This document shows, piece after piece, positions 2,289 through 44,457 of a stretch of 64,000 nucleotides of DNA. The stretch covers positions 62,001 through 126,000 of the forward strand of contig NZ_SIZZ01000001.1 in the NCBI RefSeq assembly GCF_004322705.1, given 5' to 3'. Source of the DNA: Dyella terrae. GTDB taxonomy: Bacteria; Pseudomonadota; Gammaproteobacteria; Xanthomonadales; Rhodanobacteraceae. Each line of letters opens with the position of its first letter. Position 1 is the first letter of the stretch. Made by a program: the position numbers and the translations under genes. The notes under the pieces were generated by a model. It saw only the letters and a program-made list of their open reading frames with translations, did not search any database and was not told the origin of the DNA.

Positions 2289-3725
2289 ATGTCCCTGCTC
2301 CGCTCGTTGTTCGCCGTCAAGCCCGTGGAGGCTTCCCTCACATCGGATGACTCGCTGCGACGAACGCTCGGACTCAAGGAGCTGATCGTGCTGGGCGTCG
2401 GTGCCGTGATCGGCGCAGGTATTTTCGTCATCACCGGCCAGGCCGCCGCCGAGCACGCCGGTCCCGCCCTGACGATCTCGTTCGTCCTGGCCGGCCTTGC
2501 GGCGGCGCTCGCCGCCCTGAGCTACGCGGAGTTCGCCGCGATGCTGCCGGTGTCGGGCAGTGCCTACGTTTACGCCTACGCGACCTTTGGCGAACTGCTG
2601 GCCTGGTTTATCGGCTGGAACGTCGTCGCGGAATACCTGCTGGCAGTGTCGTCGGTGGCCGTCGGCTGGTCGGGTTACGGCGTCGGCCTGCTGCACTCGA
2701 TTGGCATCCACGTGCCTGACGCGCTCGCCAATGCCCCCCTGAGCTTCAAGGACGGTCGCCTGCAGGCGACCGGTGCCTTGATGAACCTGCCGGCGCTGCT
2801 GGTGGTCGCCGCGCTTACCGCGCTGCTCTATCGCGGCACGCGTCAGTCGACCCTGTTCGCGAGCGTGGTCGTGGCGCTGAAAGTGCTGGTGGTGGTGCTC
2901 TTCGTGGTGGTGGGCATGCAATACGTCGATCCGTCGCTGTGGCACCCGTACGTGCCGGAAAACCAGGGTGGCGACCACTACGGCTGGGCCGGTGTGTTCC
3001 GTGCGGCGACGAGCGTGTTCTACGCCTATATCGGCTTTGACGCGGTCGCTACGGCGGCGCAGGAAACCCGTAACCCACAGAAGAACGTGCCGCTGGGCAT
3101 CCTGATTTCGCTGGCCGTCTGCACGGTGCTCTACATCATCGTGGCGGCCGTGCTGACCGGACTGGTGCCGTATCCGGAGCTGGCCACGGCCGAGCCGGTG
3201 GCGACCGCGCTGGCGGCGCACCCGCCGCTGGCCTGGCTGAAGCTGCTGACGCAGATGGGTGCCGTGGCGGGGCTGACCTCGGTGATCCTGGTGATGCACC
3301 TGGGCCTGGCGCGCATCCTCTACACGATGGCAGGCGATGGCCTGTTGCCGACCTTCTTTGGCGCGGTGCACGAGAAGCACCAGACCCCGCATCGCACGAC
3401 CTTGCTGGTTGGCTGCATCGGTGGCGTGCTGGCAGCGGTGTTCCCGCTCAGCCTGCTGGGCGACCTGTTGTCGATGGGTACCTTGCTGGCCTTCGCCACC
3501 GTCTGCGTGGGTGTCCTCGTGCTGCGTCGCACGCATCCGGAGATCCCGCGTGGATTCCGCGTGCCGGCGGCGCCGGTGGTGTGCAGCCTTGGTGTGCTGG
3601 TGTGCCTGTTCCTGCTGGCGCAGATGAACCGGGGCAACTGGATGTTGCTGGCAGGATGGACCGCCATCGGCATGCTGATCTACGTCGGCTACGGGTATCG
3701 TCACAGCCGCCTGCGCGGCCGCTGA
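2289..3725 (+). CDS. APC-family amino acid permease (cationic amino acid transporter type)
   Basis: The product is a 478-residue polytopic membrane protein with about 12-14 hydrophobic segments. The family signature GVGAVIGAGIFVITG lies near the start of the first helix and FYAYIGFDAVATAAQETRNP lies mid-protein, typical of the YfnA/CAT branch of amino acid-polyamine-organocation transporters. It probably imports an amino acid by proton symport, and the substrate is not determinable here. The frame is open from 2223, but the ATG at 2289 is preferred: a GAGG lies about 9 bases upstream and homologues begin near the LFAVKP segment. A perfect 11-bp hairpin follows the stop codon. No partner enzyme is adjacent. 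Confidence 0.9.
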   Translation: MSLLRSLFAVKPVEASLTSDDSLRRTLGLKELIVLGVGAVIGAGIFVITGQAAAEHAGPALTISFVLAGLAAALAALSYAEFAAMLPVSGSAYVYAYATFGELLAWFIGWNVVAEYLLAVSSVAVGWSGYGVGLLHSIGIHVPDALANAPLSFKDGRLQATGALMNLPALLVVAALTALLYRGTRQSTLFASVVVALKVLVVVLFVVVGMQYVDPSLWHPYVPENQGGDHYGWAGVFRAATSVFYAYIGFDAVATAAQETRNPQKNVPLGILISLAVCTVLYIIVAAVLTGLVPYPELATAEPVATALAAHPPLAWLKLLTQMGAVAGLTSVILVMHLGLARILYTMAGDGLLPTFFGAVHEKHQTPHRTTLLVGCIGGVLAAVFPLSLLGDLLSMGTLLAFATVCVGVLVLRRTHPEIPRGFRVPAAPVVCSLGVLVCLFLLAQMNRGNWMLLAGWTAIGMLIYVGYGYRHSRLRGR

Positions 3726-3734
3726 TCCATCCCG

Positions 3735-3763
3735 GTGCGACTGGATGCACGGTCCAGTCGCAC
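3735..3763 (+). terminator. hairpin downstream of the permease gene
   Basis: GTGCGACTGGA (3735-3745) and TCCAGTCGCAC (3753-3763) are perfect inverted repeats around a 7-base loop, 9 bases after the permease stop codon. There is no T tract, so it is either a Rho-assisted 3' end or an RNA-stabilising hairpin. The role is inferred from position. Confidence 0.5.
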
Positions 3764-3910
3764 ATGCCTGCGTGACGTCAGTGCGGCGCGTCGGCGGAGT
3801 GCCGTACCCGGCCTTCGCCCGTCAAGCCTCGGCTCGCGCGCTACCGGATTCAGTGGCGGTGCGGTCGCGGCTTGTCACGGTTCGCCCGTTCCCGTTGACG
3901 CACGAAACGA

Positions 3911-4138
3911 TCAACCGCCAATCCTGAATCTCTCTACCCCTCCGGGCAGATCAAGGTAATGATCAAGGCCCGCGACTTTCAGCGGGTTCCGGTCGTAGTC
4001 GGTGTGATCCGATCCATCCGCAGCCGCGGCCGAGGCTCGCATCCCGAAAACGACCTGGCCTGTGTCAGCGCCATGAGGACGCGGGGCCGGCGGGCCCTCC
4101 GTGGGTGGTACGACAATGGGGCGTTCTGGAAGCATCAT
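3911..4138 (-). CDS. possible small protein of unknown function (75 aa)
   Basis: A 75-residue reading frame starts ATGATG at 4138. AGGAG stands 7 bases upstream, an ideal Shine-Dalgarno sequence, and this decides the start within a longer open frame that runs to 4285. The product begins MMLPERPIVVPPTEGPPAPR, a proline-rich head, followed by a polar acidic/aromatic tail with DHTDYDRNP and LDHYLDLPGG. It has no signal peptide, membrane segment or cysteine. I recognise no family. It lies alone in a gap between the permease gene and rnhB. The ribosome site favours a real gene, while the high-GC background makes chance frames common, so confidence is moderate. Confidence 0.4.
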   Translation of the reverse strand: MMLPERPIVVPPTEGPPAPRPHGADTGQVVFGMRASAAAADGSDHTDYDRNPLKVAGLDHYLDLPGGVERFRIGG

Positions 4139-4650
4139 GGCTGGACTCCTGCGGCGCCGCGCCGCTGAGAAGTTCCGCGTGGTTCCGGGGCGGCTACGCG
4201 CGCGGAAGGTTGCACCAGGCATCCCTGCGTGTTCCGAAGTGGCGACGTCCTGGCATTGGCCGTAGTCGCACATGCATTCAGCCAACTTCGCGTTGCTCTA
4301 TCGAATGGATGCGGGCGCGTTGAAAAGGGTTGAAGCGAACGCGTGGCATCCGATGAATAGAGGTGGCTGAAGCGATGAAGTTCCGTGCCGGAACGCATCC
4401 ATGCCATAGGTCATGCGTTCCGCTGTGGAACATAGTCTATGCCGATGACGACTTGATGGCGCATGTCAAAGGGCATGCGCCCGGAAGGGAAAAACAAGGG
4501 GATTTTGGCCTTGTTGATGCATCGGTGAGACAACGGGAGCGGTCGGGTGGACGTTCAGTCGTTGCGCATGCCTGGCGTCAGGATGCCGACAACGGTGTCA
4601 CGACGATTCTGTCTCGGGATGAACGATACGGTGCCCGGCGCAGCTGTTGC
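4139..4650. other. intergenic stretch without a convincing gene
   Basis: About 510 bases separate the small frame at 3911-4138 from the end of rnhB. Frames here lack plausible ribosome sites and recognisable motifs. The stretch appears less GC-rich than its surroundings. It contains the nested inverted repeat at 4380-4431 and a weaker palindrome near 4458-4479 (GCGCATG ... CATGCGC). Confidence 0.5.
4380..4431. repeat. nested inverted repeat (GTTCC/GGAAC dyads)
   Basis: The 19-base arms GTTCCGTGCCGGAACGCAT (4380-4398) and ATGCGTTCCGCTGTGGAAC (4413-4431) are inverted copies matching at 15 of 19 positions, separated by 14 bases. Each arm also contains its own GTTCC...GGAAC dyad. It could be an operator cluster, a cruciform-forming site or a remnant of a mobile element. 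The sequence does not decide between these. Confidence 0.6.
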
Positions 4651-4663
4651 TCAGAACAGCTGC
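4640..4663 (-). terminator. hairpin across the rnhB stop codon
   Basis: GCAGCTGTT (4640-4648) and AACAGCTGC (4655-4663) form a perfect 9-bp stem with a 6-base loop that includes the rnhB stop codon. There is no T run after it on the minus strand. It probably marks or protects the 3' end of the envelope superoperon transcript. Confidence 0.45.
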
Positions 4664-5241
4664 CCTTGATCGAGCAGGACGCGTACGGGTGCAAAGCTGC
4701 GGCGATGTTCGTCGCAAGGTCCCAAACGCTGCAGGGCTTCCATGTGCGCCGGCGTGCCATAGCCCTTGTGCGTGGCGAAACCATAGCCCGGATAGCTGCT
4801 TTCCATGGCGCACATCATGCGATCACGCGTGACTTTGGCAAGGATGGATGCCGCGCTGATGGACGGCTCCAGCGCATCACCGCCGACGATGGCGCGTCCG
4901 GCACAAGGCAATGCCTTTGGCACGTAGTTGCCGTCGATCAGCGCTTCATGCGCGTTGGGCATCAGGTTCGCCACGGCCTGGCACATGCCTGCCATGGTGG
5001 CCTGGAAAATGTTCAGGCGATCGATGTCCGGCACACTCATCACGACGACGCTATAGGCGACGGCGTGCTCGATGATCTGCGGATAAAGCGCCTCGCGCTT
5101 CGCTTCGGTGAGTTTTTTCGAGTCGTCCAGGCCCGCGATGCAACGGCGGGGATTCAGGATGACGGCGGCAACGACAACAGGGCCGGCGAGGGGGCCACGG
5201 CCGGCTTCGTCCACGCCGGCAATCCAGCGCGGCTCAGCCAT
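4651..5241 (-). CDS. rnhB: ribonuclease HII
   Basis: This 196-residue protein is type 2 RNase H, which cuts RNA in RNA-DNA hybrids and removes misincorporated ribonucleotides. [13 protein letters not shown] (residues 9-21) holds the catalytic Asp11-Glu12 pair. [14 protein letters not shown] and [12 protein letters not shown] supply the remaining family motifs. Length is normal. The ATG at 5241 overlaps the end of lpxB by 8 bases, so translation is probably coupled. It is the last gene of the lpx operon. The usual next gene, dnaE, is displaced by about 4.2 kb. Confidence 0.97.
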
Positions 5242-6523
5242 GCGGACGCTCGATCAGCTCAACAATGGCAGCTGCGGCACGATCGCCAGCCTGGCCTTCG
5301 AGTTCGCCGCGCAAGGCATGATGCAGTTGTTCGAACGCGGCCACGATTTCGCCGCGACGCTGGCTGTCCTGAAAGAGCGCCAGCGTGGCCGCGGCCAGCT
5401 TTTCCGGCGTGCAGTCGTCCTGCATCAACTCCGGCACGAGGATAGTGTCTTTGCCAAGGCCGCAGGCGCGCGCCAGGATGTTCGGCAGCGCATAGACATC
5501 GGTCTTGAGCATGTTGAATGCTTTGGCGATGCGATAACTCACCGGCGACACGCGGTAGCCAACGACCATCGGGCGCTTGGCCAGCATAGCTTCCAGCGTG
5601 GCCGTACCTGACGCCAGCAGCACGACGTCGGCGGCCAGCATGACTTCGTGCGCATGGCCGTCGATCAACACCGGCGCACCGTCGTTGCCTGGCGTATCGC
5701 CGAGCAGCGCGGTCAGTGTTGCATGCACCTGGGCGTTGGCCGCCGGGATGACGATGCGCAGGCCCGGCAAATCCGCAGCGACCTTTTTGGCCGCCTCGAT
5801 GAAGATGCGTCCGAGCTTATTGACTTCGGACGGCCGACTGCCGGGGAGCACCGCCAACACGGGCGCATTCTGCGGTAACTGCAGGAAGTCGCGCGCGCCG
5901 ATTCGATCGGACACCAGCGCGAAGCGATCAGCCAGCGGATGACCGACGAAGCGCGCATCGACGCCGTGACGCGAGTAGATGTCCGGCTCCATCGGGAACA
6001 GGCACAGCACCCGATCCGCGCTTCGGCCGATTTTTTCCGCACGTTTTTCGCGCCAGGCCCAGATCGACGGGCTGACGTAATGCACCGTGCGCAGTCCGGC
6101 CGTGCGCACGCGTTGTTCGACGCCCAGGTTGAAATCGGGTGCATCGATGCCGACGACGACCGCGGGGCGCTCAAGAATCAGCCGGGCGACCAGTTCCTTG
6201 CGCAGCCGCAACAGGCGGGGCAGGTGGCTGATGACTTCGGCGAATCCGAACAGCGACAGTTCGCGAATGTCGTACCAGGAATCGAAGCCTTGGGTCTTCA
6301 TGCGCGCGCCGCCGATGCCCACGAAGCGCGCGAGCGGATACCGGTGGCGCAAGGCGACAATGAGGTCCGCGCCCAGCTGATCGCCGGAGTCCTCGCCTGC
6401 GAGGATGGCGATCGTAGGGGCCGACTGACCGGATGAGGCGAGCGTGTCCTGGATGCCGGCCGGCACGGGGGCCGGGCTTACCGGCGCGTGTACGGCATGG
6501 TCTTCCGAATCGCTATGACCCAT
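5234..6523 (-). CDS. lpxB: lipid-A-disaccharide synthase
   Basis: LpxB joins UDP-2,3-diacylglucosamine to lipid X to form the tetraacyl disaccharide of lipid A at the inner face of the cytoplasmic membrane. The 429-residue product carries [11 protein letters not shown] near residue 42, [21 protein letters not shown] and FVGHPLAD, all typical of this GT19 enzyme. About 35 N-terminal residues before the conserved core are extra compared with the E. coli protein and look disordered (Pro/Ala/Ser-rich). AGGAGG lies 9 bases before the ATG at 6523, which supports this start. It lies between lpxA and rnhB. Confidence 0.97.
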
Positions 6524-6541
6524 TCCCGGTTACCTCCTGCA

Positions 6542-7315
6542 TCAACGCGCGAGCGCGCGTTCGCTGCGATCGAGGAACTCCAGCATCGAACGTACGTCAT
6601 CGCTGTCTTGCGCCTGCGACTCCAGCTGCTCGCGTGCGTCGGCCTGCGTGAGGCCTGCCATGTAAAGCGTCCGATAGGCGCGCTTGATGGCCGAGATCCG
6701 CGTGCTGTCGAAGCCGCGACGCTTGAGTCCTTCGCTGTTGATGCCGCGAGGACGACCACGCTGTTCATTGGCCATCATGATGAACGGCGGCACGTCCGAG
6801 CCGACCAGGCAGCCCATGCCGATGAAGGCATGCGCACCGACCTTGCAGAACTGATGCACGCCGGAGAACCCGGACATGATCACGTGGTCCCCAATGTCCA
6901 CGTGGCCGGCAAGGGCCGCGTAATTGGAGAACACGGTGTTGTTGCCGATGTGGCAGTCGTGCGCGACATGGACGTAGGCCAGCAGCCAGTTGTCGTTGCC
7001 GATGCTTGTGATGCTGCCACCGTCACCCGTGCCGCGATTGATCGTCACAAACTCGCGAATGAGGTTGCGGTCGCCAATGACCAGCTCGGTGCGCTCACCG
7101 GTGAACTTCTTGTCCTGCGGCGCGCCACCCAGGGAGGCGAACTGGCTGATCCGGTTCTCGCGACCAATGCGCGTCGGACCTTCGATGACCACATGCGGAC
7201 CGATGACGGTGCCGTCGCCGATTTCCACGTCGGCACCGATGACGCTGTAGGCGCCGATGCTGACGTTGCTGCCAATTTTCGCGGAAGGATCGATGAGCGC
7301 GGTGGGGTGAATCAT
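6542..7315 (-). CDS. lpxA: acyl-ACP--UDP-N-acetylglucosamine O-acyltransferase
   Basis: LpxA performs the first step of lipid A synthesis, moving a 3-hydroxyacyl chain from ACP to UDP-GlcNAc. The 257-residue protein begins [17 protein letters not shown], continues with left-handed beta-helix hexapeptide repeats, and has [15 protein letters not shown] with the catalytic histidine and the C-terminal [10 protein letters not shown] block. Length matches the family. The ATG overlaps the fabZ stop codon as ATGA, indicating coupled translation. It is part of lpxD-fabZ-lpxA-lpxB-rnhB. Confidence 0.98.
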
Positions 7316-31266: not shown

Positions 31267-31755
31267 ATGCCCTATACCCCCATTACCGCCACCCTCGGTT
31301 ACGTGCTGTCGCCCGATCGCCAGCGCGTACTCATGATCCATCGCAACTCGCGTCCCGATGATCTGCACCTGGGCAAGTACAACGGCCTGGGCGGCAAGAT
31401 GGAGCCCGGCGAGGACATTGCCAGCTGCATGCAACGCGAAATCCTCGAGGAAGCCGGCATCACCTGCGAGTCGATGCAGCTGCGCGGTACGCTCAACTGG
31501 CCCGGTTTCGGCAAGCATGGCGAGGACTGGCTGGGTTTCATCTTCATCATCGATCGCTACAGCGGCACGCCGATGGAGTCCAACCACGAAGGCACGCTGG
31601 AATGGGTGGATGTCTCGCGTCTGATGGAGCTACCCATGTGGGAGGGTGATCGCCATTTCCTTCCGCTCGTGTTCGACGGCGATCCGCGCCCGTTCCACGG
31701 CGTGATGCCGTACAAGGATGGGCGCATGCAGTCGTGGTCGTTTACCCGCCTGTGA
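31267..31755 (+). CDS. Nudix hydrolase (MutT/8-oxo-dGTPase type)
   Basis: The 162-residue protein has a complete Nudix box, GGKMEPGEDIASCMQREI followed by LEEAGI, so it should hydrolyse a nucleoside diphosphate derivative with Mg2+. HLGKYNGLGGKMEPGED and the C-terminal PMWEGDRHFLPLVFDGDPR segment resemble the MTH1/MutT subgroup that sanitises oxidised nucleotides. ATG at 31267 gives the usual N terminus. The stop codon overlaps the start of a second Nudix gene. Confidence 0.88.
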   Translation: MPYTPITATLGYVLSPDRQRVLMIHRNSRPDDLHLGKYNGLGGKMEPGEDIASCMQREILEEAGITCESMQLRGTLNWPGFGKHGEDWLGFIFIIDRYSGTPMESNHEGTLEWVDVSRLMELPMWEGDRHFLPLVFDGDPRPFHGVMPYKDGRMQSWSFTRL

Positions 31756-32150
31756 CCGATCGCACGATCCATATCGTCGCTGCGATGATCCGTGACGAGC
31801 GCGGGCATGTGCTGCTCGTGCGCAAGCGTGGTGCGCAGGTTTACCAGCAGCCCGGGGGCAAGCGGGATCCGGGCGATCGCGATGATCTGCACACGCTCCG
31901 GCGGGAGCTGCACGAGGAACTGGGTTGCACGATGGATGAATCCAGCGCGATCTGCCTGGGAACGTTCAGCGCACCCGCAGCCAATGAGCCGGGATGGACG
32001 GTGTCGGCACACGTCTACGAAGTGCGTGCCGAAGGCCCCTTCGTCGTGCAAGCGGAAATCGAGAGCCTGGTCTGGGTCGATCCGGCGGCTCCGGGCGATA
32101 CGCCGATCGCCCGGTTGAGTCGCGAACAGTTACTGCCGCTCATGCACTAA
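31752..32150 (+). CDS. Nudix hydrolase with atypical Nudix box
   Basis: The 132-residue protein has the Nudix fold with HVLLVRKRGAQVYQQPGGKRDPGDRDD, shown here in part, and RRELHEELG. The box has one extra residue and Asp/Arg where the first conserved glutamate normally stands, so activity or substrate may differ from the first Nudix protein. The GTG at 31752 overlaps the upstream stop codon as GTGA, indicating coupled translation; the frame is open 18 bases further to another GTG. It converges on the condensing enzyme gene. Confidence 0.8.
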   Translation: MTDRTIHIVAAMIRDERGHVLLVRKRGAQVYQQPGGKRDPGDRDDLHTLRRELHEELGCTMDESSAICLGTFSAPAANEPGWTVSAHVYEVRAEGPFVVQAEIESLVWVDPAAPGDTPIARLSREQLLPLMH

Positions 32151-32183: not shown

Positions 32184-33395
32184 TCAGAACTTGCGCAGCG
32201 CGACCACGGCATTCAGGCCGCCAAACGCAAACGAGTTGCTGATCGCTGCATCCACCTTCACACGGCGCGGCTCGTTCGGGACATAGTCGAGATCGCAGGC
32301 CGGATCGGGGCCGAGATATCCCAGCGTCGGCGGCACGATGCCTTCGCGCATGGCGCCAAGCACGGCGATCAGCTCCAGTGCACCGGCCGCGCCCAGCGCA
32401 TGGCCGTGCATCGGCTTGGTGGAGGAGATCACCAGCTCACGTGCATGCGCACCGAACACGCGATGGATCGTGCGTGTTTCGGTGCTGTCGTTTGCGACGG
32501 TGCCCGTGCCGTGCGCGTTAATGTAGTCGACGTCTTCCGGTGCCATGCGTGCGTCGCGCAGCGCGGCGGTAACGGCTGCCGAGGCGCCGATTTCAGAAGG
32601 CGCCGCGATGTCGCCCGCGTCCGAACTCATGCCGGTGCCGGCCAGTTCGGCGAGGATGGTGGCGCCGCGCGCCTGTGCGTGCTCCAGCGCCTCCACCACG
32701 AACATGCCGGCGCCTTCGCCAAGCACGATGCCGCGACGCCCGCTGCTGAAGGGGCGGCAGGTGTCCGGTGCCAGGACGCGCATCGCTTCCCACGAGCGCA
32801 GCGTGCCAAGGGTGATGCAGGCCTCGGTGCCGCCCACCACGGCGGCATCGACCAGGCCGCTGCGAATCATCATCGCGGCCTGGGCGAAGGCATGGTTGGA
32901 GGACGAACAGGCGCTGGCGAGGGCGAAGGCCGGCCCGGTGATGCCGTGGACCATGCTGATCTGGCTGGCCGGGGCGTTCATCATCATGCGGATGATGCCC
33001 AGCGGGTGGAATCGTCCGGCATGTTCGCCGTAGAGCTTTTCGTACTGCTCGTCGCGGGTGGTCTCGCCACCGACGCCGGTGCCCACGACCACGGCTGTGC
33101 GAGCGGCGGTTTCACCTTCGAACGTGATGCCGGATTGTTCGATGGCTTCGCGCGCTGCGACCAGCGCGTACTGGCTGACCACGTCCAGCTGGTTCAGTCG
33201 CGACTCGTCGAAATGCTGGGTCGGATCAAAATCCACGACTTCCGCCGCAATACCGCCGTTGCGCAGCTGCCCGGGCAGGATGTGGTGGATCGGGCCGATG
33301 CCGCTGCGGCCTTCGGCCATACCCTTCCAGGTAGAGGCCGCATCGTGGCCGAGCGCGCTGATGGCGCCCATGCCGGTAATGACGAGTCGACGCAT
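32184..33395 (-). CDS. beta-ketoacyl-ACP synthase II-like condensing enzyme
   Basis: The 403-residue thiolase-fold enzyme carries the full Cys-His-His triad of chain-elongating condensing enzymes: Cys163 in ASACSSSNHA, His295 in NAHGTGT and His332 in TKPMHGHALGAAG. It should condense malonyl-ACP with an acyl chain. ATG at 33395 (MRRLVITGMGAISALG) gives the family start; the longer frame runs back through the ACP gene. The ACP gene lies 4 bases upstream. The pairing with a dedicated ACP next to acyltransferase and aminotransferase genes suggests specialised lipid synthesis rather than housekeeping FabF. Confidence 0.9.
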   Translation of the reverse strand: MRRLVITGMGAISALGHDAASTWKGMAEGRSGIGPIHHILPGQLRNGGIAAEVVDFDPTQHFDESRLNQLDVVSQYALVAAREAIEQSGITFEGETAARTAVVVGTGVGGETTRDEQYEKLYGEHAGRFHPLGIIRMMMNAPASQISMVHGITGPAFALASACSSSNHAFAQAAMMIRSGLVDAAVVGGTEACITLGTLRSWEAMRVLAPDTCRPFSSGRRGIVLGEGAGMFVVEALEHAQARGATILAELAGTGMSSDAGDIAAPSEIGASAAVTAALRDARMAPEDVDYINAHGTGTVANDSTETRTIHRVFGAHARELVISSTKPMHGHALGAAGALELIAVLGAMREGIVPPTLGYLGPDPACDLDYVPNEPRRVKVDAAISNSFAFGGLNAVVALRKF

Positions 33396-33399
33396 GAAT

Positions 33400-33660
33400 T
33401 CAGCCGGTAGTGTTCTTTGCCGCGAGCTGGCGCTCGATGGCCTTGATGAGATCGCCGATGGTGCCGTTTTCAAAGTCGGCATCTTCATTCGGCAGCTGGA
33501 TATCGAAATGTTCTTCCAGGTCGAACACGACTTCGATGGCGTCAAGCGAGGCAACACCGAGGTCCTTGAGAGTGGACTCAGGCGTGATGGTGGCGATGTC
33601 GATCTTCGCCTGCTTGGCGATGATGTCGAAGGTGGCCTGCTGTACCTGTTCGTTGCTCAT
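33400..33660 (-). CDS. dedicated acyl carrier protein
   Basis: This 86-residue acidic helical protein resembles AcpP, with ESTLKDLGVASLDAIEVVFD and LEEHFDIQL. Ser38 aligns with the 4'-phosphopantetheine site. The usual DSL triplet reads ASL, so the conserved aspartate is lost. ATG at 33660 is preferred to the longer frame to 33690. It is followed after 4 bases by the condensing enzyme and is divergent from the acyltransferase gene. It probably carries the acyl chain for this cluster and not for general fatty acid synthesis. Confidence 0.88.
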   Translation of the reverse strand: MSNEQVQQATFDIIAKQAKIDIATITPESTLKDLGVASLDAIEVVFDLEEHFDIQLPNEDADFENGTIGDLIKAIERQLAAKNTTG

Positions 33661-33848
33661 GCTGGTTCCCGGTGGGTGACGCCAGGGCATCTGGCTGGGC
33701 CGGCCGCGTGGCCGAATGGAGCAAAGCCTGACGAAGTGCGGGGGCGTTGTCCAGAAAGCCTGGTGCGTCGGAGCGCATCCTGACCGGGGAGCCTTTCACC
33801 AACCTTATTCGACCGCGAAAGGTGGAAGTGGCCCGGAGGGTCGTATCC

Positions 33849-34952
33849 TTGGCCGACGGGCGCGTTCGCGCTGGATGGAATCACTGCGTGCGGTATTTGA
33901 ATCAGCTCGAGCCCGATGCGCTCGTCGCCGGCTTTGTCGAGCACCCTCCCGTGGGGTTCGGCGTGCGGGAGGCCGCGCAGACGCCGGCGTTCGTGGCGCC
34001 GTTCGACCTGCTGACAACGGCTGAGCCCGCGGTCCGCCAGAAGGTGACGGGTGCGCCCGGCTATCGCTGGTGGGGGCGCCTGCTGCGCTGGCGTACGGCC
34101 TTCGTCGGCACCACGGTGTCGGAGTACGCCCTGTTTCCAGCCGATGCCGATGCCACCGCGCTTCCGGGGCGCCTGGCCCAGGCACTGGGGCGCGAACAGC
34201 GCATGTTGATCGTCAAGGATATTCCGCAGGACTCGCCCCTGCTTTCGCCGGCCGAACGGTCCTGGTCGACGCGCTTTGCCGATGCCTGTCAGGAAGCGGG
34301 GTACGTACTGCTGGAAGGGCAGGCCCTGGCTTATGTGCCGATCGATTTCGCCAGCGAAGATGAATACCTGGCCCGGCTTTCCTCCGGTCGTCGCAAGGAT
34401 ATTCGCCGCAAGCTGCGCAAGCGCGACGATGTCACGGTGGAGACGGTCCACTGCGGTGATCCGCGTTTCGCCGACGACGCGGTCATCGATGCGTACTACG
34501 CGCTCTACGAAAACGTCTACGCGCAGAGCGAGATCCATTTCGACAAGCTCAGTCGCGAATTCTTTGTCAGGATCCTTCGCGACGGGAGCCATGGCGGCGT
34601 GGTGTTCGTATACCGCGTCGACAGCAAGATGATCGGCTGGAACCTGTGTTTCGTGGTCGATGGAAAACTGATCGACAAATACGTTGGCTTCGCTTACCCG
34701 CAGGCTCGCGAGCAGAACCTGTACTTCACCAGCTGGTTCCGCAATCTTGAATACGCGCGCGAGCGCGGCTTGACGCACTACGTCGCCGGCTGGACCGATC
34801 CGCAGGTCAAGTCGTACCTGGGTGCGAAATTCACCTTGACCCGCCACGCCATTTATCTGCGCAACCCCTTGCTGCGTGCGGTAGCGCGGCGACTGGGCCA
34901 CCTGTTCGAAAGCGACAGCCAATGGGGGACGAACGTCGATGATCAAGCGTAA
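33849..34952 (+). CDS. FemAB/GNAT-like acyltransferase
   Basis: The protein, about 367 residues, resembles the peptidogalycan/FemAB-like and Acetyltransf_6 groups of the GNAT superfamily, with LSSGRRKDIRRKLRKRDD, the IDAYYALYENVYAQSEI helix and a C-terminal acyl-CoA fold (KMIGWNLCFVVDGKLIDKYV, YFTSWFRNLEYARERGL). It should acylate an amine. No ATG is in frame. TTG at 33849 is preferred for its GGAGG 9 bases upstream, while the frame stays open to 33747. The end overlaps the arginase-like gene by 14 bases. It is divergent from the ACP gene. Confidence 0.75.
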   Translation: MADGRVRAGWNHCVRYLNQLEPDALVAGFVEHPPVGFGVREAAQTPAFVAPFDLLTTAEPAVRQKVTGAPGYRWWGRLLRWRTAFVGTTVSEYALFPADADATALPGRLAQALGREQRMLIVKDIPQDSPLLSPAERSWSTRFADACQEAGYVLLEGQALAYVPIDFASEDEYLARLSSGRRKDIRRKLRKRDDVTVETVHCGDPRFADDAVIDAYYALYENVYAQSEIHFDKLSREFFVRILRDGSHGGVVFVYRVDSKMIGWNLCFVVDGKLIDKYVGFAYPQAREQNLYFTSWFRNLEYARERGLTHYVAGWTDPQVKSYLGAKFTLTRHAIYLRNPLLRAVARRLGHLFESDSQWGTNVDDQA

Positions 34953-35814
34953 TCCCCTGGTTCTGGATTTCGACGGTTCGGTCGGCGACATTCCCGGCGC
35001 CACCGTCCTGCCCCTGTCGGACTGGCAGGAAGACATCCGGTTCGGCTGCACGCTGCGCACGTTCGCGAGGCTGGAGCGCCATCTCGATGCGTCGATCGAG
35101 GACGATTACGGCACCGTGCTGATGGGCTCGGGCGACTACCACCATCTCACCTGGCCGCTGGTGAAGCGGCAGCGCCTGCGCGGGCCGTTCCAGCTGGTGG
35201 TGTTCGACAATCACCCCGACAACATGCGGTTCCCCTTGGGTATCCATTGCGGATCCTGGGTGCGCAAGGTGGCCTTGCTGCCTTACGTGACGCATGTGCA
35301 CGTCGTGGGTATCACTTCAGGCGACATCGGGGCGGCGCATGCGTGGGAGAACTACCTGCGACCCTTGCGCGCCGGCAAGCTCAGCTACTGGTCGATGGAT
35401 GTCGATGTGGGCTGGGCCCGCAAGCTCGGGCTTGCCCATGCCTTCAGGCGCTTCGACGATCCTGACTCGCTTACCCGTGCCATGGTCGACCAGCTCGAGC
35501 TGGCACCGCAGCCGACCTACCTGTCGATCGACAAGGACGCGTTCAGCGTAACGACCGCCCGCACGAACTGGGACCAGGGGCGTATCGAGGAGCGTCACGG
35601 CATGGCGATCATCGCCGCCCTGCGCGGACAGATCATCGCCAGCGACATCAATGGTGAAGTGTCGGCCTATCACTATCGCACCTGGTGGAAGCGCCTGCTC
35701 AGCGGCATGGACGGGCAGGAACCGGTGCCGCAGGCTGAGCTGGATGCGTGGCAGGCGCAACAGCGTGCCTTGAACACTCGGCTGCTCGCTGCCATTGCGC
35801 AAAGCAGCGTCTGA
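34939..35814 (+). CDS. arginase/deacetylase-fold protein
   Basis: The 291-residue protein shows the metal-binding pattern of the ureohydrolase (arginase) fold in the right order: GSGDYHH (residues 63-69), VVFDNHPDN (D90, H92, D94 as DxHxD) and LSIDKDAF (D198, D200 as SxDxD). A second SxDxD-like stretch, WSMDVDVG, lies at 151-158. It could hydrolyse a guanidino, ureido or amide bond with a two-metal centre. The rest does not look like classical arginase or agmatinase. It overlaps the acyltransferase gene by 14 bases, so the two are co-expressed. The specific reaction is unknown. Confidence 0.65.
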   Translation: MIKRNPLVLDFDGSVGDIPGATVLPLSDWQEDIRFGCTLRTFARLERHLDASIEDDYGTVLMGSGDYHHLTWPLVKRQRLRGPFQLVVFDNHPDNMRFPLGIHCGSWVRKVALLPYVTHVHVVGITSGDIGAAHAWENYLRPLRAGKLSYWSMDVDVGWARKLGLAHAFRRFDDPDSLTRAMVDQLELAPQPTYLSIDKDAFSVTTARTNWDQGRIEERHGMAIIAALRGQIIASDINGEVSAYHYRTWWKRLLSGMDGQEPVPQAELDAWQAQQRALNTRLLAAIAQSSV

Positions 35815-35820
35815 GCGCGG

Positions 35821-37026
35821 TCAGGCGTCGCGCAGAACGCGCTGCAAGGTGGCGAGGATGTGGTCAAACTCCTCGTCTGTCAGCCAGGGCGAGTTAGTAA
35901 TCGTCAGCGAGCGCGCAGCAAAGTCGCGGGCCTGAGGGAGTGCCGCCGACGGAACGATGTCGCGCAGATAGCCATAGTCTGGAAGGGCATGGATGAAGAG
36001 GCGGCTGACACCGAGGCCTGCGGTCCACAAATCCCTGAGCGCCGCGTCGCGCTTCTCCTGGCTGGGCATCAGCAACATCAGGAACGGCCAGACACCTTCG
36101 TTACCACGCGCGTCGCTGAAAACCGTCAGGCCGGGCAGGGGGCGCAAGGACGCAAGTCGACGCCAGGCTTGCTGGCGCGTCGTCTCCATGAACGGAGACA
36201 GGCGCGCGAGGGCATGCGCGCCGACGGATTGCCGCCAGCGGCCCAGGGGGTGCATGGGAATATCGATATCGAAATCGTCACCGACAGCCGCGACCGGATC
36301 GCCGGCGGCAAGCGCCTTGCGCAAGGGGCGTCCGTAGAACCACGACAGCAGCGACGGGCGATAGGCGAGCGTGTAGCCGAAGAGTTCCAGCGCGCGTTGC
36401 AGCGTCCAGCGCGCGCTCGGCCGGGCCAGCTTGCGGCTGTTTTCAGCGAAGGCCCGGCGTAGCGTCGCGTCCCGCGTCACCAGGATGCCGCCTTCGAAGG
36501 TGGTCAGGCCCTTGCCGACCGCGAGGCTGAAAAAGCCAGCATCGCCGCGAAGGCCGACGCTCTGGCCGAATTGCCTGGCGCCCAGTGCCTGCGCGGCATC
36601 TTCCAGGACATAGGCGCCGCAGGCGCGGGCGACATGCAGTGCCGCATCGACATCGGCGAGGCGGCCGCCCAGGTGCGTCGGCACGATCGCCAGGGTCTGG
36701 GCGCCGGCGAGCGAGGCGATCTGCTGGGCGTCCATATCGAAATGATCGGGGGCCAGGTCACATAAGCGAATCGTGAGGCCGGCGCGATGGATGGCCAGCG
36801 CCACCAACGGACACGTCCATGCCGGCACGATGACTTCATCGCGATCCGGGCGCAGTTGGTGCATGGCCTGCAGGGCGATCACCATCGCCGACGTCCCGGA
36901 GCACTCGAGCTGCACGCTCTCCACGCCAAGCCAAGTCGCCAGTGCGCGGTCGAAACCGCTCGCGCCGGGAAGCCAGTCACTCAGGCGCAGCGGCAGTCCG
37001 GCAGTGGGCGGCAGCTCGCGTGACAT
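35821..37026 (-). CDS. DegT/DnrJ/EryC1/StrS-family aminotransferase
   Basis: The 401-residue PLP enzyme has ECSGTSAMVIAL (phosphate site), VPAWTCPLVALAI, LEDAAQALGA with Asp143 for the pyridine nitrogen, and FSLAVGKGLTTFEGG with Lys172 as the Schiff-base lysine. Family members aminate keto-sugars and related ketones, often for surface polysaccharides or lipid modification. It is the last gene of a tight four-gene unit, 4 bases after a small transporter, and converges on the arginase-like gene with a 6-base gap. No sugar-nucleotide genes are adjacent, so a non-sugar ketone substrate is possible. Confidence 0.88.
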   Translation of the reverse strand: MSRELPPTAGLPLRLSDWLPGASGFDRALATWLGVESVQLECSGTSAMVIALQAMHQLRPDRDEVIVPAWTCPLVALAIHRAGLTIRLCDLAPDHFDMDAQQIASLAGAQTLAIVPTHLGGRLADVDAALHVARACGAYVLEDAAQALGARQFGQSVGLRGDAGFFSLAVGKGLTTFEGGILVTRDATLRRAFAENSRKLARPSARWTLQRALELFGYTLAYRPSLLSWFYGRPLRKALAAGDPVAAVGDDFDIDIPMHPLGRWRQSVGAHALARLSPFMETTRQQAWRRLASLRPLPGLTVFSDARGNEGVWPFLMLLMPSQEKRDAALRDLWTAGLGVSRLFIHALPDYGYLRDIVPSAALPQARDFAARSLTITNSPWLTDEEFDHILATLQRVLRDA

Positions 37027-37030
37027 GGCG

Positions 37031-37462
37031 TCAGTCTCCCGCGGCTACACCCAGGGCGCCCTTGGCTTCGGTCGGGGCGTCGTGCTCCGGATGCGAGCCG
37101 CTCTCGGCGAAGGCCAGGCAGACGATGCCGGCGACGATCACCAGCGCACCGGCCACGCGCGGCCAGGTCAGCGGTTCGTTGAACAGCCATACGGAGAACA
37201 ACATGACGCTGACCACCTCCAGGTGCGTGACCGCGAATGCGGGCCCGATCGGTGCATGCTTGAGTAGCGTCATCCATGTGAAAAAGTTGCCGATATAGCC
37301 AATCACCGCGATGTAGATCCACGGATGGCCGAACACGCGCACGATCCAGGCCCAGTTGGCCTCCGGCGGAAAGGCGTGGTTGCCGGCGTATTTGAAGGCC
37401 AGCTGCACGGCGGTGTCGAAGGCGACGAGGATCAGGAAGCCGAAGAAGTAAAAGCGCTTCAT
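37031..37462 (-). CDS. small EamA/SMR-type transporter subunit B
   Basis: The 143-residue protein has four predicted helices (about 4-24, 42-62, 70-90, 97-117) and a hydrophilic tail. FDTAVQLAFKYAG in helix 1 matches the homologous LDTIGQLAFKAA of the gene just upstream, so the two are a paralogous pair that may work as a heterodimer, as ArnE/ArnF do in flipping a lipid-linked sugar. ATG at 37462 is preferred to the frame end at 37492. Spacing is 4 bases on both sides. The substrate is probably the product of the surrounding pathway. Confidence 0.8.
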   Translation of the reverse strand: MKRFYFFGFLILVAFDTAVQLAFKYAGNHAFPPEANWAWIVRVFGHPWIYIAVIGYIGNFFTWMTLLKHAPIGPAFAVTHLEVVSVMLFSVWLFNEPLTWPRVAGALVIVAGIVCLAFAESGSHPEHDAPTEAKGALGVAAGD

Positions 37463-37466
37463 GCGA

Positions 37467-37832
37467 TCAGCCTCCTCCTGCCACGCCAACAATCGCCACG
37501 CCCAGCGTCACCAGCAGGATGCCTGTGACACGCATGGGCGTGAGCTTTTCGCGGAACAGGATGCGTCCGCCGATCATGATCACCACGATGTTGATCGAGC
37601 CCAGCAGCACGCCTTCGGACAGATCGACCAACGAAAGGAACGCGATCCACACCAGAAATTCGGCGGCATACGAGATGACGCCGACCCACAGCCACGGACG
37701 CGAGGCCATGTATTTCCAGCGTGCGATACCGTCACCTGCCTCGGGGTCGCCCGCCGCAGCCTTGAAGGCCAGCTGGCCGATGGTGTCGAGGGTGACGTTG
37801 AGCAACCAGAGGAAAACCGCGAGCGGACCCAC
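37467..37832 (-). CDS. small EamA/SMR-type transporter subunit A
   Basis: This is a 121-residue, four-helix membrane protein (helices at about 3-22, 48-68, 74-94, 99-118) of the small multidrug-resistance/EamA class. GTG at 37832 has AGGAGG 6 bases upstream, overlapping the hydrolase stop codon region, which decides the start. It pairs with the similar protein encoded directly downstream. Such pairs export or flip hydrophobic or lipid-linked compounds across the inner membrane. Confidence 0.8.
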   Translation of the reverse strand: MGPLAVFLWLLNVTLDTIGQLAFKAAAGDPEAGDGIARWKYMASRPWLWVGVISYAAEFLVWIAFLSLVDLSEGVLLGSINIVVIMIGGRILFREKLTPMRVTGILLVTLGVAIVGVAGGG

Positions 37833-37841
37833 CGAGCCTCC

Positions 37842-38681
37842 TCAGGCCGCTTCGCGCGCAGCAGGTTCGCAGGCCTGGGCGATCCGGCCGAAGAAATCGG
37901 CGGAGCGATCGATCAGGGTGCGGCGTTCACGGTCGATGGTGATCATGTGGTAGCTGTCTTCGAGCAACAGCATTTCTACGGGACCGGACACCGTGCTTTC
38001 GACCAGGCGCGCGTTGGCCATGCTGGCGATATCGTCTTCGGTGGCATGCGCGATCAGGCAGGGCGCGGTGACCTTGGGCAGGTCGCGGCGAACCACGGCA
38101 GCCATCTTGTACATCTCCGCCAGCGACGGCCACGGATTGCCGGGCAGGCCAGCTGCGGCGCTATCGCCGCCAAGCATGAGCGAGCTGATCTGCGCGCGGA
38201 TGCGCTCGTCGCGCAGGCCATAAGGCTCTGCCTCGTGGACCATCCATTTTTTGCCGATGCCCAGCTTGTCGATCAGCGGCAGCAGGAATGAGAACTTGCC
38301 GTACCAGGGCGTGGCCCAGCCGTCGTACTTGAACGTGGCGCCGTAAACGCCCACGCCCTGCACCCAGTCCGGGTGATCGGCGGCCAGCTTCAGCGCCAGC
38401 ACCGCACCCATCGAGAGACCGGCAACGAACAGCTGGTCGACTTCCTTGCGGAACTCGCGCGCAGCGGCCTCGACGCTGGCGTACCAGTCCTGCCAGTGGG
38501 TGGCGAGCAGGTCGGCGGCGTCGCCGCAGTGGCCGGCCAGCTGCATGCCGTAGACGCTGAATCCTGCGCGGTTGAGACCCTTGCCGACCAGGCGCATTTC
38601 GGCAGGCGTGCCGGTGAGGCCGTGGATCAGCAGGACGCCGCTACGGCCGCCTTCGAAGCGGAACTCGACGTTCTGGATCAC
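37842..38681 (-). CDS. alpha/beta hydrolase (carboxylesterase/monoacylglycerol lipase type)
   Basis: The 279-residue cytosolic hydrolase has the oxyanion segment LLIHGLTGTPAEMR, the nucleophile elbow AGLSMGAV with Ser90, an acid in HATEDDIAS and the histidine in EDSYHMITIDRER. This pattern matches Est30-type carboxylesterases that cut short or medium acyl esters. The frame opens with GTG at 38681. It is first in the unit with the two small transporters and the aminotransferase, 9 bases before the next start. It might release or proofread the acyl product. Confidence 0.85.
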   Translation of the reverse strand: MIQNVEFRFEGGRSGVLLIHGLTGTPAEMRLVGKGLNRAGFSVYGMQLAGHCGDAADLLATHWQDWYASVEAAAREFRKEVDQLFVAGLSMGAVLALKLAADHPDWVQGVGVYGATFKYDGWATPWYGKFSFLLPLIDKLGIGKKWMVHEAEPYGLRDERIRAQISSLMLGGDSAAAGLPGNPWPSLAEMYKMAAVVRRDLPKVTAPCLIAHATEDDIASMANARLVESTVSGPVEMLLLEDSYHMITIDRERRTLIDRSADFFGRIAQACEPAAREAA

Positions 38682-43203: not shown

Positions 43204-44457
43204 GTGAAAATCCAACACGCAGGGTCCGCCGCATTGGCAGCGGGTTTGTTCGCTGCCGTGGCAGGTACTGCCCAGGCCCACGGTGCGGTCGAGTTTCCCA
43301 TCGCCCGCCAGTTGCAATGCCTCAATGATGGCGGCTTCTGGTGGCCCGCCGACGGTTCGGGCGTGCCCAATGCCGCCTGCCGCGCAGCATTCCAGCGCTC
43401 GGGCAATTACCCGTTCACGCAGTATCACGAAGTGGCCGCCCTTACCCAGGACTATCGCAATCCGCTCGCGGTGCGACGCCAGGTGCCGGACGGTGCGTTG
43501 TGTTCGGCCGGAGACGCGAAGAAAGCCGGTCTCGACGCCGTCAGTTCGGCGTGGCACAAGACGCCGATCACGCTGGAGAACGGCAAGTTCCGCATGCTGT
43601 TGCTCGCCACGGCCCCGCACAACCCGTCGTATGTCGAGATCTACCTGAGCCGCCCCGGTTACTCCGCCGCACGAAGTGCTTTGCGCTGGGACGATCTGGA
43701 CCTGATCCATCAGGCATCGGCACCGATGCCTGAAACCATTGGTGGCAAGAAGTACTACGTCTATGACGTGCCGGTGCCGGCAGGGCGCAGGGGGGATGCC
43801 GTGGTCTACACCCGCTGGCAGCGCGAGGATCCGGCCGGCGAAGGGTTCTACAACTGCAGCGACGTGACCTTTGAAGGCGGCGGTACCGTGCCGACGTTTC
43901 CCTGGCACGAGTGGGGCTACTTCCTTGGCCAGGGCTTTGCACCCAAAGCGGGTGAGACGGTGCAGTTCCGCGTGCTCGGACCCAGCCTGTCCGGCAAGGA
44001 GCTGGTAACCGAAAGCATCGCCGTGACGCCGGACAATGCAGCCAGCCATCGCTGGGCGCTCGAACTCGGTGCGCGACTGAACGGCATCCATGGCGAGCAG
44101 GTTCGCGTCGGCGTACGCCACGGCGATGACATCCATCTGGACACGCGCAACGTGCAGGCCAACCAGGTGTTCCTGAAGGACAAGGACAGCAGCGTGTCCA
44201 TGTCGATCCTTTCCGACGACGTGCCGCCGGTGAAACCCGAGCCCCCGGTGACGCCGCCCGGCGACTATCCGAAGTGGCCCGCAGGCATCGGCCAGTATCA
44301 GTCAGGCGACATCGTGGAAGGCGTTGACGGAAAGTTGTGGCAGTGCAAGCCCTTCCCGCATGGCGCGTGGTGCAACATCAACGCGTGGGCGTATACGCCC
44401 GGTGGCAAGGATGTGCCGCCGGCCGAGGATCAGCGGGCCTGGCGCCTGGCGGAGTAG
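43204..44457 (+). CDS. lytic polysaccharide monooxygenase (AA10) with chitin-binding modules
   Basis: The secreted copper enzyme cuts chitin or cellulose oxidatively. The signal peptide ends AQA before His26, which becomes the N-terminal copper ligand. His139 in ATAPHNPSYVEIYLSRPGY is the second ligand and Phe223 in NCSDVTF the axial residue, completing the histidine brace. A GbpA-like middle domain (about 235-340) and a C-terminal CBM5/12 chitin-binding module (YPKWPAGIGQYQSGDIV, WNINAWAY-like) follow. The start is GTG with AGGAAGG upstream. At 417 residues it resembles multi-modular GbpA-type chitin-active enzymes. Confidence 0.92.
   Translation: MKIQHAGSAALAAGLFAAVAGTAQAHGAVEFPIARQLQCLNDGGFWWPADGSGVPNAACRAAFQRSGNYPFTQYHEVAALTQDYRNPLAVRRQVPDGALCSAGDAKKAGLDAVSSAWHKTPITLENGKFRMLLLATAPHNPSYVEIYLSRPGYSAARSALRWDDLDLIHQASAPMPETIGGKKYYVYDVPVPAGRRGDAVVYTRWQREDPAGEGFYNCSDVTFEGGGTVPTFPWHEWGYFLGQGFAPKAGETVQFRVLGPSLSGKELVTESIAVTPDNAASHRWALELGARLNGIHGEQVRVGVRHGDDIHLDTRNVQANQVFLKDKDSSVSMSILSDDVPPVKPEPPVTPPGDYPKWPAGIGQYQSGDIVEGVDGKLWQCKPFPHGAWCNINAWAYTPGGKDVPPAEDQRAWRLAE

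What the first reader, a model, noticed from the sequence alone, without database searches (positions are those of the whole stretch)
32184..38681. Possible undescribed pathway: condensing enzyme, private ACP, acyltransferase, arginase-fold protein, aminotransferase, paired small exporters and esterase
Eight genes in three tightly packed transcription units, back to back, form a closed set: carbon-chain building (beta-ketoacyl synthase with full C-H-H triad plus its own ACP), amine introduction (DegT PLP enzyme with Lys172), N-acylation (FemAB/GNAT-like), a two-metal hydrolase fold, an esterase and an ArnE/ArnF-like transporter pair. No sugar-nucleotide, NRPS or standard fatty acid genes are present. 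The parts fit an exported acylated amino lipid or signal. I do not recognise a described cluster with this composition. The product and pathway order are inference.
Basis: partly seen in the sequence, partly recalled or inferred. Interest (0 to 1): 0.78.

Follow-up and report, generated by a model that had tools for sequence, protein, structure and literature searches.

The report
Conserved undescribed acylated-amine biosynthesis-export system
Eight neighbouring genes in a Dyella-like bacterium form one half of a widely conserved pathway that probably builds, tailors and exports an amine-bearing, lipid-like molecule; the product is unknown.

Summary
The eight genes exist as described: KS–ACP, NAT–ARG and DegT–SMR1–SMR2–EST, in three tight transcription units. 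Catalytic residues are intact (KS C163/H295/H332, ACP S38, DegT K172, EST S90/H245, a full set of candidate arginase metal ligands) and all eight genes show purifying selection (dN/dS about 0.06–0.25). They are not chance neighbours: FemAB-like NAT lies in the same locus as arginase-fold ARG in 101 of 101 distinct related loci (next to it in 100), in at least eight gene orders, across two families of the window's order and Burkholderiales. But the set is not closed. Relatives add a class-III PLP enzyme (AT3), a MtnX-like HAD phosphatase and a DevBCA-type ABC exporter with outer-membrane channel; the window's genome carries all of these 1.6 Mb away. Presence/absence suggests a core (AT3, HAD, EST, usually the SMR pair, often KS–ACP) and a detachable tailoring unit (NAT–ARG–DegT). 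Best reading: synthesis and export of an acylated amine/aminolipid, tailored by DegT amination, NAT acyl or aminoacyl transfer and ARG hydrolysis. Product, substrates and order are inference. Boldest reading not excluded: NAT attaches arginine and ARG trims it to ornithine. Structure prediction was never available.

The parts
32184..33395 (-). KS: FabF-type beta-ketoacyl-ACP synthase, 403 aa, cluster-specific clade
   Evidence: Pfam PF00109/PF02801; C163, H295, H332, K327 invariant in 18 rows; apart from own-genome FabF in a tree, 98/97 support for the cluster clade
33400..33660 (-). ACP: acyl carrier protein, 86 aa, phosphopantetheine Ser38
   Evidence: PF00550 E 1.9e-12; S38 invariant in 19 rows
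33661..33887 (.). Divergent intergenic region between ACP and NAT, probable shared promoter region (inference)
   Evidence: Short blocks conserved in at least 85% of 16 sequences: window plus 15 Dyella-type loci
33888..34952 (+). NAT: FemAB-like / GNAT acyl- or aminoacyl-transferase, 354 aa
   Evidence: PF04339 47.2 bits and PF13480 44.4 bits, over cut-off; start set by alignment
34939..35814 (+). ARG: arginase-superfamily metallohydrolase, 291 aa; GSGDxHH, DNHPD, IDKD, HCGSW, NWDQG
   Evidence: PF00491 in 36 of 36 aligned members; motifs invariant
35821..37026 (-). DegT: DegT/DnrJ/EryC1 PLP aminotransferase, 401 aa, Lys172
   Evidence: PF01041 E 5.8e-47; K172 invariant in 20 rows; inherited with NAT and ARG
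37031..37462 (-). SMR1: EamA/SMR-type transporter subunit, 143 aa
   Evidence: PF00892 43.9 bits; match in 28 of 150 genomes of the order, nearly the same set as AT3
37467..37832 (-). SMR2: EamA/SMR-type transporter subunit, 121 aa, partner of SMR1
   Evidence: PF00892 31.5 bits; next to SMR1 in most relatives that have it
37842..38681 (-). EST: alpha/beta hydrolase (Hydrolase_4), 279 aa, GLSMG nucleophile
   Evidence: PF12146 76.8 bits; S90, H245 invariant in 21 rows; near AT3 in 14 of 16 fetched AT3 loci

Best explanation
The eight genes are one half of a conserved two-part system that makes, tailors and exports an acylated amine, most likely an aminolipid. CORE: a class-III PLP enzyme (AT3) and a MtnX-like HAD phosphatase make a small amine or amino alcohol; KS with its private ACP builds or supplies a special acyl chain; EST, an alpha/beta hydrolase, releases or transfers it; the SMR1/SMR2 pair flips the product across the inner membrane and, in many hosts, a DevBCA-type ABC exporter plus outer-membrane channel moves it out. 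TAILORING UNIT: DegT adds an amine, NAT acylates or aminoacylates it, and ARG hydrolyses a guanidino-, amidino- or amide-type group on the conjugate. Shown: gene content, catalytic residues, linkage, joint presence/absence, the second locus in the same genome. Inferred: substrates, order, lipid nature, export direction.
For: Linkage: 80 named and 26 unnamed loci, five of them the same place twice, so 101 distinct; NAT is in the locus in all, directly next to ARG in all but L053. Of the 80 named, DegT is in 64, SMR1 62, SMR2 60, EST 57, KS 61, ACP 61, AT3 51, HAD 44, OMF 37, DevC 38, in at least eight real gene orders (my count). Own second locus: AT3 (84% identical to a relative's), HAD, OMF, DevC, DevA, HlyD, MipA and a two-component pair together. 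Over the same 150 genomes: ARG 27, AT3 28, both 26, neither 121; 22 of the 26 pairs within 15 kb. Unit behaviour: DegT orthologue in 25 of 25 unnamed relatives with the main NAT/ARG type (19 in the locus, 6 elsewhere) and in 0 of 9 tested genomes where that type was not found; G060 keeps EST-SMR2-SMR1-ACP-KS in place with exactly NAT-ARG-DegT missing. HAD and EST both lie near AT3 in 13 of 16 fetched AT3 loci, three of them with KS and ACP. An unidentified aminolipid is reported in Dyella thailandensis (passage) and an aminolipid in Luteibacter mycovicinus (passage).
Against: No product or enzyme assay exists. KS orthologues were not found in the six named Burkholderiales genomes tested (best FabF-type, 38-42%, one with no match), so the acyl chain there must come from elsewhere. 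G053 has NAT, ARG, DegT and SMR but no AT3. L188 has a 56-57% AT3 with none of the partners. Unidentified aminolipids are common in species descriptions and prove little. Genomes are related, so counts are not independent.
Confidence: 0.5

Rival explanations
1. Cell-envelope glycan modification: DegT makes an amino sugar, NAT N-acylates it, ARG trims an amidino-type substituent, and SMR1/SMR2 flip a polyprenyl-linked form as ArnE/ArnF do; AT3/HAD prepare another substituent.
For: DegT is nearest in the PDB to sugar aminotransferases (perosamine synthases); SMR subunits match ArnE/ArnF models weakly.
Against: Among the recurrent neighbour families that I looked at, no sugar-nucleotide gene stood out; a GT9-like glycosyltransferase (by eye) occurs in 2 of 80 loci, L108 and L125. 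Most flanking ORFs were not annotated, so this is weak. DegT and SMR fall far below ArnB, ArnE, ArnF and PseC cut-offs; the core persists without DegT; KS, ACP and EST stay unexplained.
Confidence: 0.2
2. Secreted small metabolite (N-acyl amino acid-like signal or antimetabolite) made by protect-transaminate-deprotect logic: NAT adds an N-acyl group, AT3 (acetylornithine-aminotransferase-like) transaminates, ARG removes the group as an HDAC-like amidohydrolase.
For: A relative's AT3 has an acetylornithine aminotransferase family as best NCBIfam model (below its cut-off: 271 of 552 bits); NAT and ARG are together in every locus; SMR plus ABC exporters suit a small exported compound.
Against: AT3 occurs without NAT and ARG in G060 and G135 and in several distant loci; nearest solved ARG relatives are arginases and a guanidinopropionase rather than deacetylases (weak: E 0.002-0.006).
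Confidence: 0.2
3. Arginine-to-ornithine tailoring: NAT transfers arginine (perhaps from arginyl-tRNA, as FemAB and arginyl transferases do) to the amine, and ARG converts it to ornithine plus urea. A special case of the best explanation.
For: NAT: FemAB_like in 31 of 31 and ATE_C (arginyl-tRNA-protein transferase) in 4 of 31 at E<=0.01. ARG keeps the metal ligands but has changed motifs, as reported for peptide arginases that act on conjugated arginine (passages of PMC10028609).
Against: ATE_C is below cut-off in the window protein (16.4 of 25 bits), and FemAB_like/GNAT proteins often use acyl thioesters (recalled); ARG lacks the peptide-arginase motif EEH(N/H)EAF; no aminoacyl donor shown.
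Confidence: 0.12
4. Unrelated housekeeping genes that happen to lie together.
For: Families are common one by one; flanking genes (ParC, DapE, Nudix, by eye) look like housekeeping.
Against: Linkage recurs in at least eight gene orders and across families, while flanking genes do not follow (nud1 12, ParC 14, dapE 8 of 80).
Confidence: 0.02

Closest known systems
Arn (L-Ara4N) lipid A modification: ArnB DegT aminotransferase with ArnE/ArnF flippase
   Same: DegT aminotransferase next to a pair of SMR/EamA subunits
   Different: Scores far below ArnB/ArnE/ArnF cut-offs; extra KS, ACP, AT3, HAD, NAT, ARG; other Arn genes were not searched for
N-acyl amino acid synthase pathways (NasY and similar)
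   Same: Acyl-ACP based N-acylation of an amine is possible; ACP in the cluster
   Different: NAT matches no NCBIfam model and no solved structure by sequence; NasY clusters carry ThiF-family and nitroreductase partners (passages), which I did not notice here and did not search for
Peptide arginases (OspR, FlmR, OhkR)
   Same: Arginase-superfamily enzymes with DXHXD and altered flanking motifs (passages)
   Different: No RiPP context noticed; [quoted passage not shown]
RtxA / serinol-phosphate route (DHAP aminotransferase, then dephosphorylation)
   Same: Logic of an aminotransferase and a dephosphorylation acting on a small phosphorylated substrate (passage of PMC3222319)
   Different: Homology between AT3 and RtxA not tested; analogy only
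DevBCA-TolC exporter of heterocyst glycolipids (recalled) / MacB family
   Same: HlyD, ABC ATPase, DevC-like permease and outer-membrane factor together
   Different: A relative's permease scores 77 bits against the devC cut-off of 290

Membership tests
Arginase/ureohydrolase superfamily (PF00491) | Profile match over cut-off | tested here: met
   27.9 bits, cut-off 22; 36 of 36 members match at E<=0.01
Arginase/ureohydrolase superfamily (PF00491) | Binuclear metal ligands: His, DxHxD, DxD | tested here: met
   H68/H69, D90-H92-D94, D198/D200 invariant in 36 rows; aligned to arginase. Which of H68/H69 is the ligand is inferred
Canonical arginase/agmatinase | GGDHS and SxDxDxxDP; agmatinase equivalog score | tested here: not met
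   GSGDxHH and SIDKDxF-type stretches instead; 18.3 bits of 174.3
Peptide arginase | DXHXD, EEH(N/H)EAF, LDIDLDYFSC | tested here: not met
   Only DXHXD present; motif list from passages, sequence
FabF (KAS II) | C-H-H triad; FabF models | tested here: inconclusive
   Triad met. PRK07314 cut-off met (416.5 of 387), TIGR03150 equivalog not met (433.4 of 493.75)
FemAB_like / Acetyltransf_6 | Pfam cut-offs | tested here: met
   47.2 of 27 and 44.4 of 22 bits
ArnE/ArnF flippase | NCBIfam equivalog cut-offs | tested here: not met
   SMR1 33.5 of 99 (ArnF); SMR2 21.6 of 92 (ArnE)
ArnB / PseC sugar aminotransferase | NCBIfam equivalog cut-offs | tested here: not met
   85.6 of 631 and 106.3 of 423.5
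DegT/DnrJ/EryC1 aminotransferase family | Family profile and PLP lysine | tested here: met
   161.1 bits, cut-off 19.8; K172 in all 20 rows
Aminolipid biosynthesis pathway | Acylated amine product detected and gene-dependent | not testable with these tools
   Needs LC-MS of mutants
Anti-phage defence systems | PADLOC model match | tested here: not met
   0 of 8 proteins match at E<=0.001

The most novel reading that the evidence does not exclude
A new tailoring logic for exported lipids: NAT places arginine (possibly from arginyl-tRNA) on a newly made amine, and the partner arginase-fold enzyme cuts it to ornithine plus urea, giving a cationic ornithyl aminolipid; NAT-ARG-DegT behave as one portable cassette added to an older AT3-HAD-EST(-KS-ACP) aminolipid pathway.
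Probability: 0.12. Interest if true: 0.85.

Novelty: new variant of a known kind. Interest (0 to 1): 0.62.

Why it matters
If the reading holds, it gives a genetic handle on an unidentified aminolipid or secreted acyl-amine of soil and water bacteria such as Dyella, Rhodanobacter, Luteibacter, Comamonas and Delftia, and gives work to an arginase-fold family whose substrate is unknown.

Tried and rejected
Chance cluster: rejected by linkage and dN/dS. Defence system: rejected, 0 of 8 PADLOC matches. Housekeeping fatty-acid KS/ACP: rejected; the genome has another FabF-type gene with an ACP-like gene just upstream, 39% identical to KS, and KS falls in a separate clade with distant cluster KSs (five own-genome rows are long branches, so deep placement is unsure). 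Arn-type lipid A enzymes: cut-offs not met. Ectoine, biotin and acetylornithine-like logic were considered from memory and dropped; no test was run. Serinol route for AT3/HAD: kept only as an analogy. Literature: ten searches gave no description of this cluster; the library lacks most subscription papers and preprints, so absence is weak. One search was badly worded and useless. I saw passages of PMC10028609, PMC12703449, PMC11165876, PMC12479983, PMC3222319 and PMC12789092; other papers only as search listings. No cluster database (MIBiG, antiSMASH) was available. Structure prediction for ARG and NAT was asked for; the queue was full each time, so no fold search was run.

Dropped rows and limits: neighbour tables drop matches covering under 35% of a query, and use permissive tblastn, so DevA, RR and HK counts include unrelated ABC ATPases and regulators. 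ORF calls in my scripts are crude and miss some genes (one search lists ARG in 68 and NAT in 74 of 80 loci where tblastn finds 80), so presence counts come from tblastn. The collection scan kept the best 80 of 547 relatives, biased to close ones. The 26 unnamed and 80 named loci share five places. Many loci are cut by contig ends, so counts are lower bounds. The order and phylum sets are samples, with different E-value limits per query (1e-5 ARG, 1e-12 NAT, 1e-120 and 1e-90 AT3, 1e-20 SMR1). Of 26 AT3 loci I fetched wider stretches of 16.
Full report
WHAT IS THERE. The window is G000:C1:62001-126000 of a 4.2-Mb genome. Its ARG protein is 80-83% identical to those of most named Dyella records (three named Dyella are at 60%), so I call it Dyella-like (inference). 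Between two Nudix genes and a small unknown gene upstream of lplA and parC (LplA by Pfam, the rest by eye) lie eight genes in three units: KS-ACP leftward, NAT-ARG rightward, DegT-SMR1-SMR2-EST leftward. Genes inside a unit are 4-9 bases apart, or overlap by 14 (NAT/ARG). ACP and NAT diverge from a 227-base region with short blocks conserved among 16 Dyella-type sequences. The mechanical NAT ORF starts too early: relatives place the start at GTG 33888.

THE GENES ARE INTACT AND SELECTED. Pfam families pass their cut-offs for all eight proteins. KS has C163, H295, H332 and K327 invariant in 18 rows; ACP S38 in 19; DegT K172 in 20; EST S90, D216/D217 and H245 in 21; ARG GSGDxHH, DNHPD, HCGSW, DKD and NWDQG in 27 and in the 36-row alignment. 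Nei-Gojobori dN/dS against four Dyella loci is 0.056-0.248 over all eight genes. All 36 aligned ARG members match the Pfam arginase family; by profile the nearest solved sequences are two arginases and a guanidinopropionase, weakly (E 0.002-0.006; a fourth hit, eRF3A at 0.019, looks like chance), and a single-sequence search found nothing sensible. All 31 aligned NAT members match FemAB_like, 20 Acetyltransf_6, 4 ATE_C at E<=0.01; NAT has no solved relative by sequence.

THE LINKAGE IS REAL. ARG was found in 27 of 150 sampled genomes of the order. I compared 26 unnamed loci outside the window with 80 named loci (the best of 547 relatives); five places are in both sets, so 101 are distinct. NAT is in the locus in every one and directly next to ARG in all but L053. 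In the 80 named loci KS and ACP are in 61 each, DegT 64, SMR1 62, SMR2 60, EST 57; many contigs end early. Genes that flank the cluster in the window do not follow it (nud1 12, ParC 14, dapE 8 of 80). I count at least eight orders and orientations, including a one-strand run ARG-SMR2-EST-NAT-SMR1-ACP-KS in L053, EST-NAT-ARG with AT3-HAD on the far side in L108 and L119, and AT3-NAT-ARG followed by the rest in Comamonas and Delftia.

THE SET IS LARGER THAN EIGHT. In Rhodanobacter, Frateuria, Luteibacter, Fulvimonas and others the same stretch often also holds a class-III PLP enzyme (AT3; in a relative the best models are acetylornithine/aspartate aminotransferase families, all below cut-off, and the best solved relatives an amino-acid racemase and aminobutyrate-type aminotransferases), a MtnX-like HAD-IB phosphatase over its subfamily cut-off (84.9 of 81.55 bits in a relative), and HlyD, DevA, DevC and an outer-membrane factor. 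In the window's genome AT3, HAD, OMF, DevC, DevA, HlyD, MipA and a two-component pair stand together at about C1:1,688,900-1,698,600, 1.6 Mb away. Over the same 150 genomes AT3 is in 28, ARG in 27, both in 26, neither in 121; 22 of the 26 pairs lie within 15 kb. The four exceptions are the window's genome, G039 (153 kb) and G046 and G085 (different contigs); their loci keep the window's gene order, and two of them are identical in ARG to named Dyella loci. The genomes are related, so the p-values printed overstate independence.

A CORE AND A DETACHABLE UNIT. G060 keeps the syntenic locus with EST, SMR2, SMR1, ACP and KS but lacks NAT, ARG and DegT, exactly the middle block; G135 lacks the same three. 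Counting DegT in the ARG locus (19) or elsewhere (6: G053, G074, G095, G100, G105, G120), 25 of 25 unnamed relatives with the main NAT/ARG type have it. Of nine tested genomes where that type was not found (G060, G135, G145, G031, G110, G013, G164, G441, G354; in G164, G441 and G354 only the AT3 locus was looked at for NAT/ARG) none has a DegT orthologue (best E 3.5e-22, against 4.4e-130 or better for the orthologues in that search). A second NAT/ARG type, about 28-32% identical, occurs without DegT in G145, in Pseudomonas-like genomes (L180, L183; L181 shows NAT only; assignment by eye) and in L179 and L182 (ARG only in the latter). Of 398 sampled genomes of the phylum 26 carry AT3. I fetched wider stretches for 16: EST is near AT3 in 14 (not L175, cut by the contig end, nor L188), HAD in 13 (not L175, L176, L188). 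L188 has AT3 alone. Three (L185, L186, L189) have ACP-KS-HAD-AT3-EST and, in the stretch held, none of NAT, ARG, DegT or SMR. KS is not universal: of 12 genomes reached through loci, four (a Dokdonella, a Lysobacterales and two unplaced proteobacterial MAGs) have the cluster-type KS unlinked at 61-64%; of six named Burkholderiales, five have only FabF-type enzymes at 38-42% and one (G152) no match; two further MAGs (L114, L126) are like these at 38-40%. G053 has NAT, ARG, DegT and SMR without AT3, which speaks against strict dependence.

MECHANISM. Shown: content, residues, linkage, joint presence and absence. Inferred from families: AT3 and HAD prepare a small amine (a route such as DHAP to serinol phosphate to serinol, known for RtxA from a passage, would fit but is only an analogy); KS-ACP provide an acyl chain; EST releases or transfers it; SMR1/SMR2 and the DevBCA-type pump export the product. 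DegT, NAT and ARG then form one tailoring unit: amination, N-acyl or aminoacyl transfer, metal-dependent hydrolysis. ARG's chemistry is the main clue. Its ligand set is that of guanidine hydrolases, but its flanking motifs have drifted, as in peptide arginases that act on conjugated arginine, whose own motifs it does not share. With FemAB/ATE-like NAT as its constant partner, arginylation followed by trimming to ornithine is possible; I give it 0.12. An unidentified aminolipid in Dyella thailandensis and an aminolipid in Luteibacter mycovicinus (passages) fit but are weak.

COMPARISON. The equivalog cut-offs of the nearest known pathway enzymes are not met: ArnB, ArnE, ArnF, PseC, agmatinase, TIGR03150 FabF, devC. 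Ten paper searches found no description; the library is partial and no cluster database was at hand. The parts are known families; the combination looks like an undescribed biosynthesis-export system, so I rate it a new variant of a known kind.

LIMITS. No structure could be predicted (queue full in 17 requests). 

Noticed in passing
L137 (G000:C1:1682000-1701000), 3585-6728: Next to the second half of the system lie ApbE-like and PepSY/flavodoxin-type genes (by eye), which look like iron or redox genes outside the conserved set.
   Followed up: no
L028-L030 and other Dyella loci, between ARG and DegT: Dyella relatives carry a CPBP-like membrane protease gene (about 290 aa, by eye) between ARG and DegT that the window lacks.
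   Followed up: no
L179, L180, L181, L183, L184, L187: There the AT3-HAD-EST set lies near a sensor kinase and an NtrC-type regulator (by eye) instead of the OmpR-type pair seen in the window's genome.
   Followed up: partly
L114, L122, L126 just after ARG: A cyclopropane-fatty-acid synthase-like gene (by eye) follows ARG in these loci.
   Followed up: no
G000:C1:1413492-1421538 and G000:C3:224406-225155: Other ketoacyl synthases: a three-gene group that may be an aryl polyene/xanthomonadin cluster (recalled) and one in a 2393-aa open frame, perhaps a modular PKS.
   Followed up: no
window 43204-44457 (+): Secreted chitin-binding/LPMO-like (GbpA-type) protein beyond parC, by eye.
   Followed up: no
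window 31267-32150 (+): Two overlapping Nudix genes (by eye) directly beside KS, kept in Dyella-type loci but in only 12 of 80 named loci overall (nud1).
   Followed up: partly
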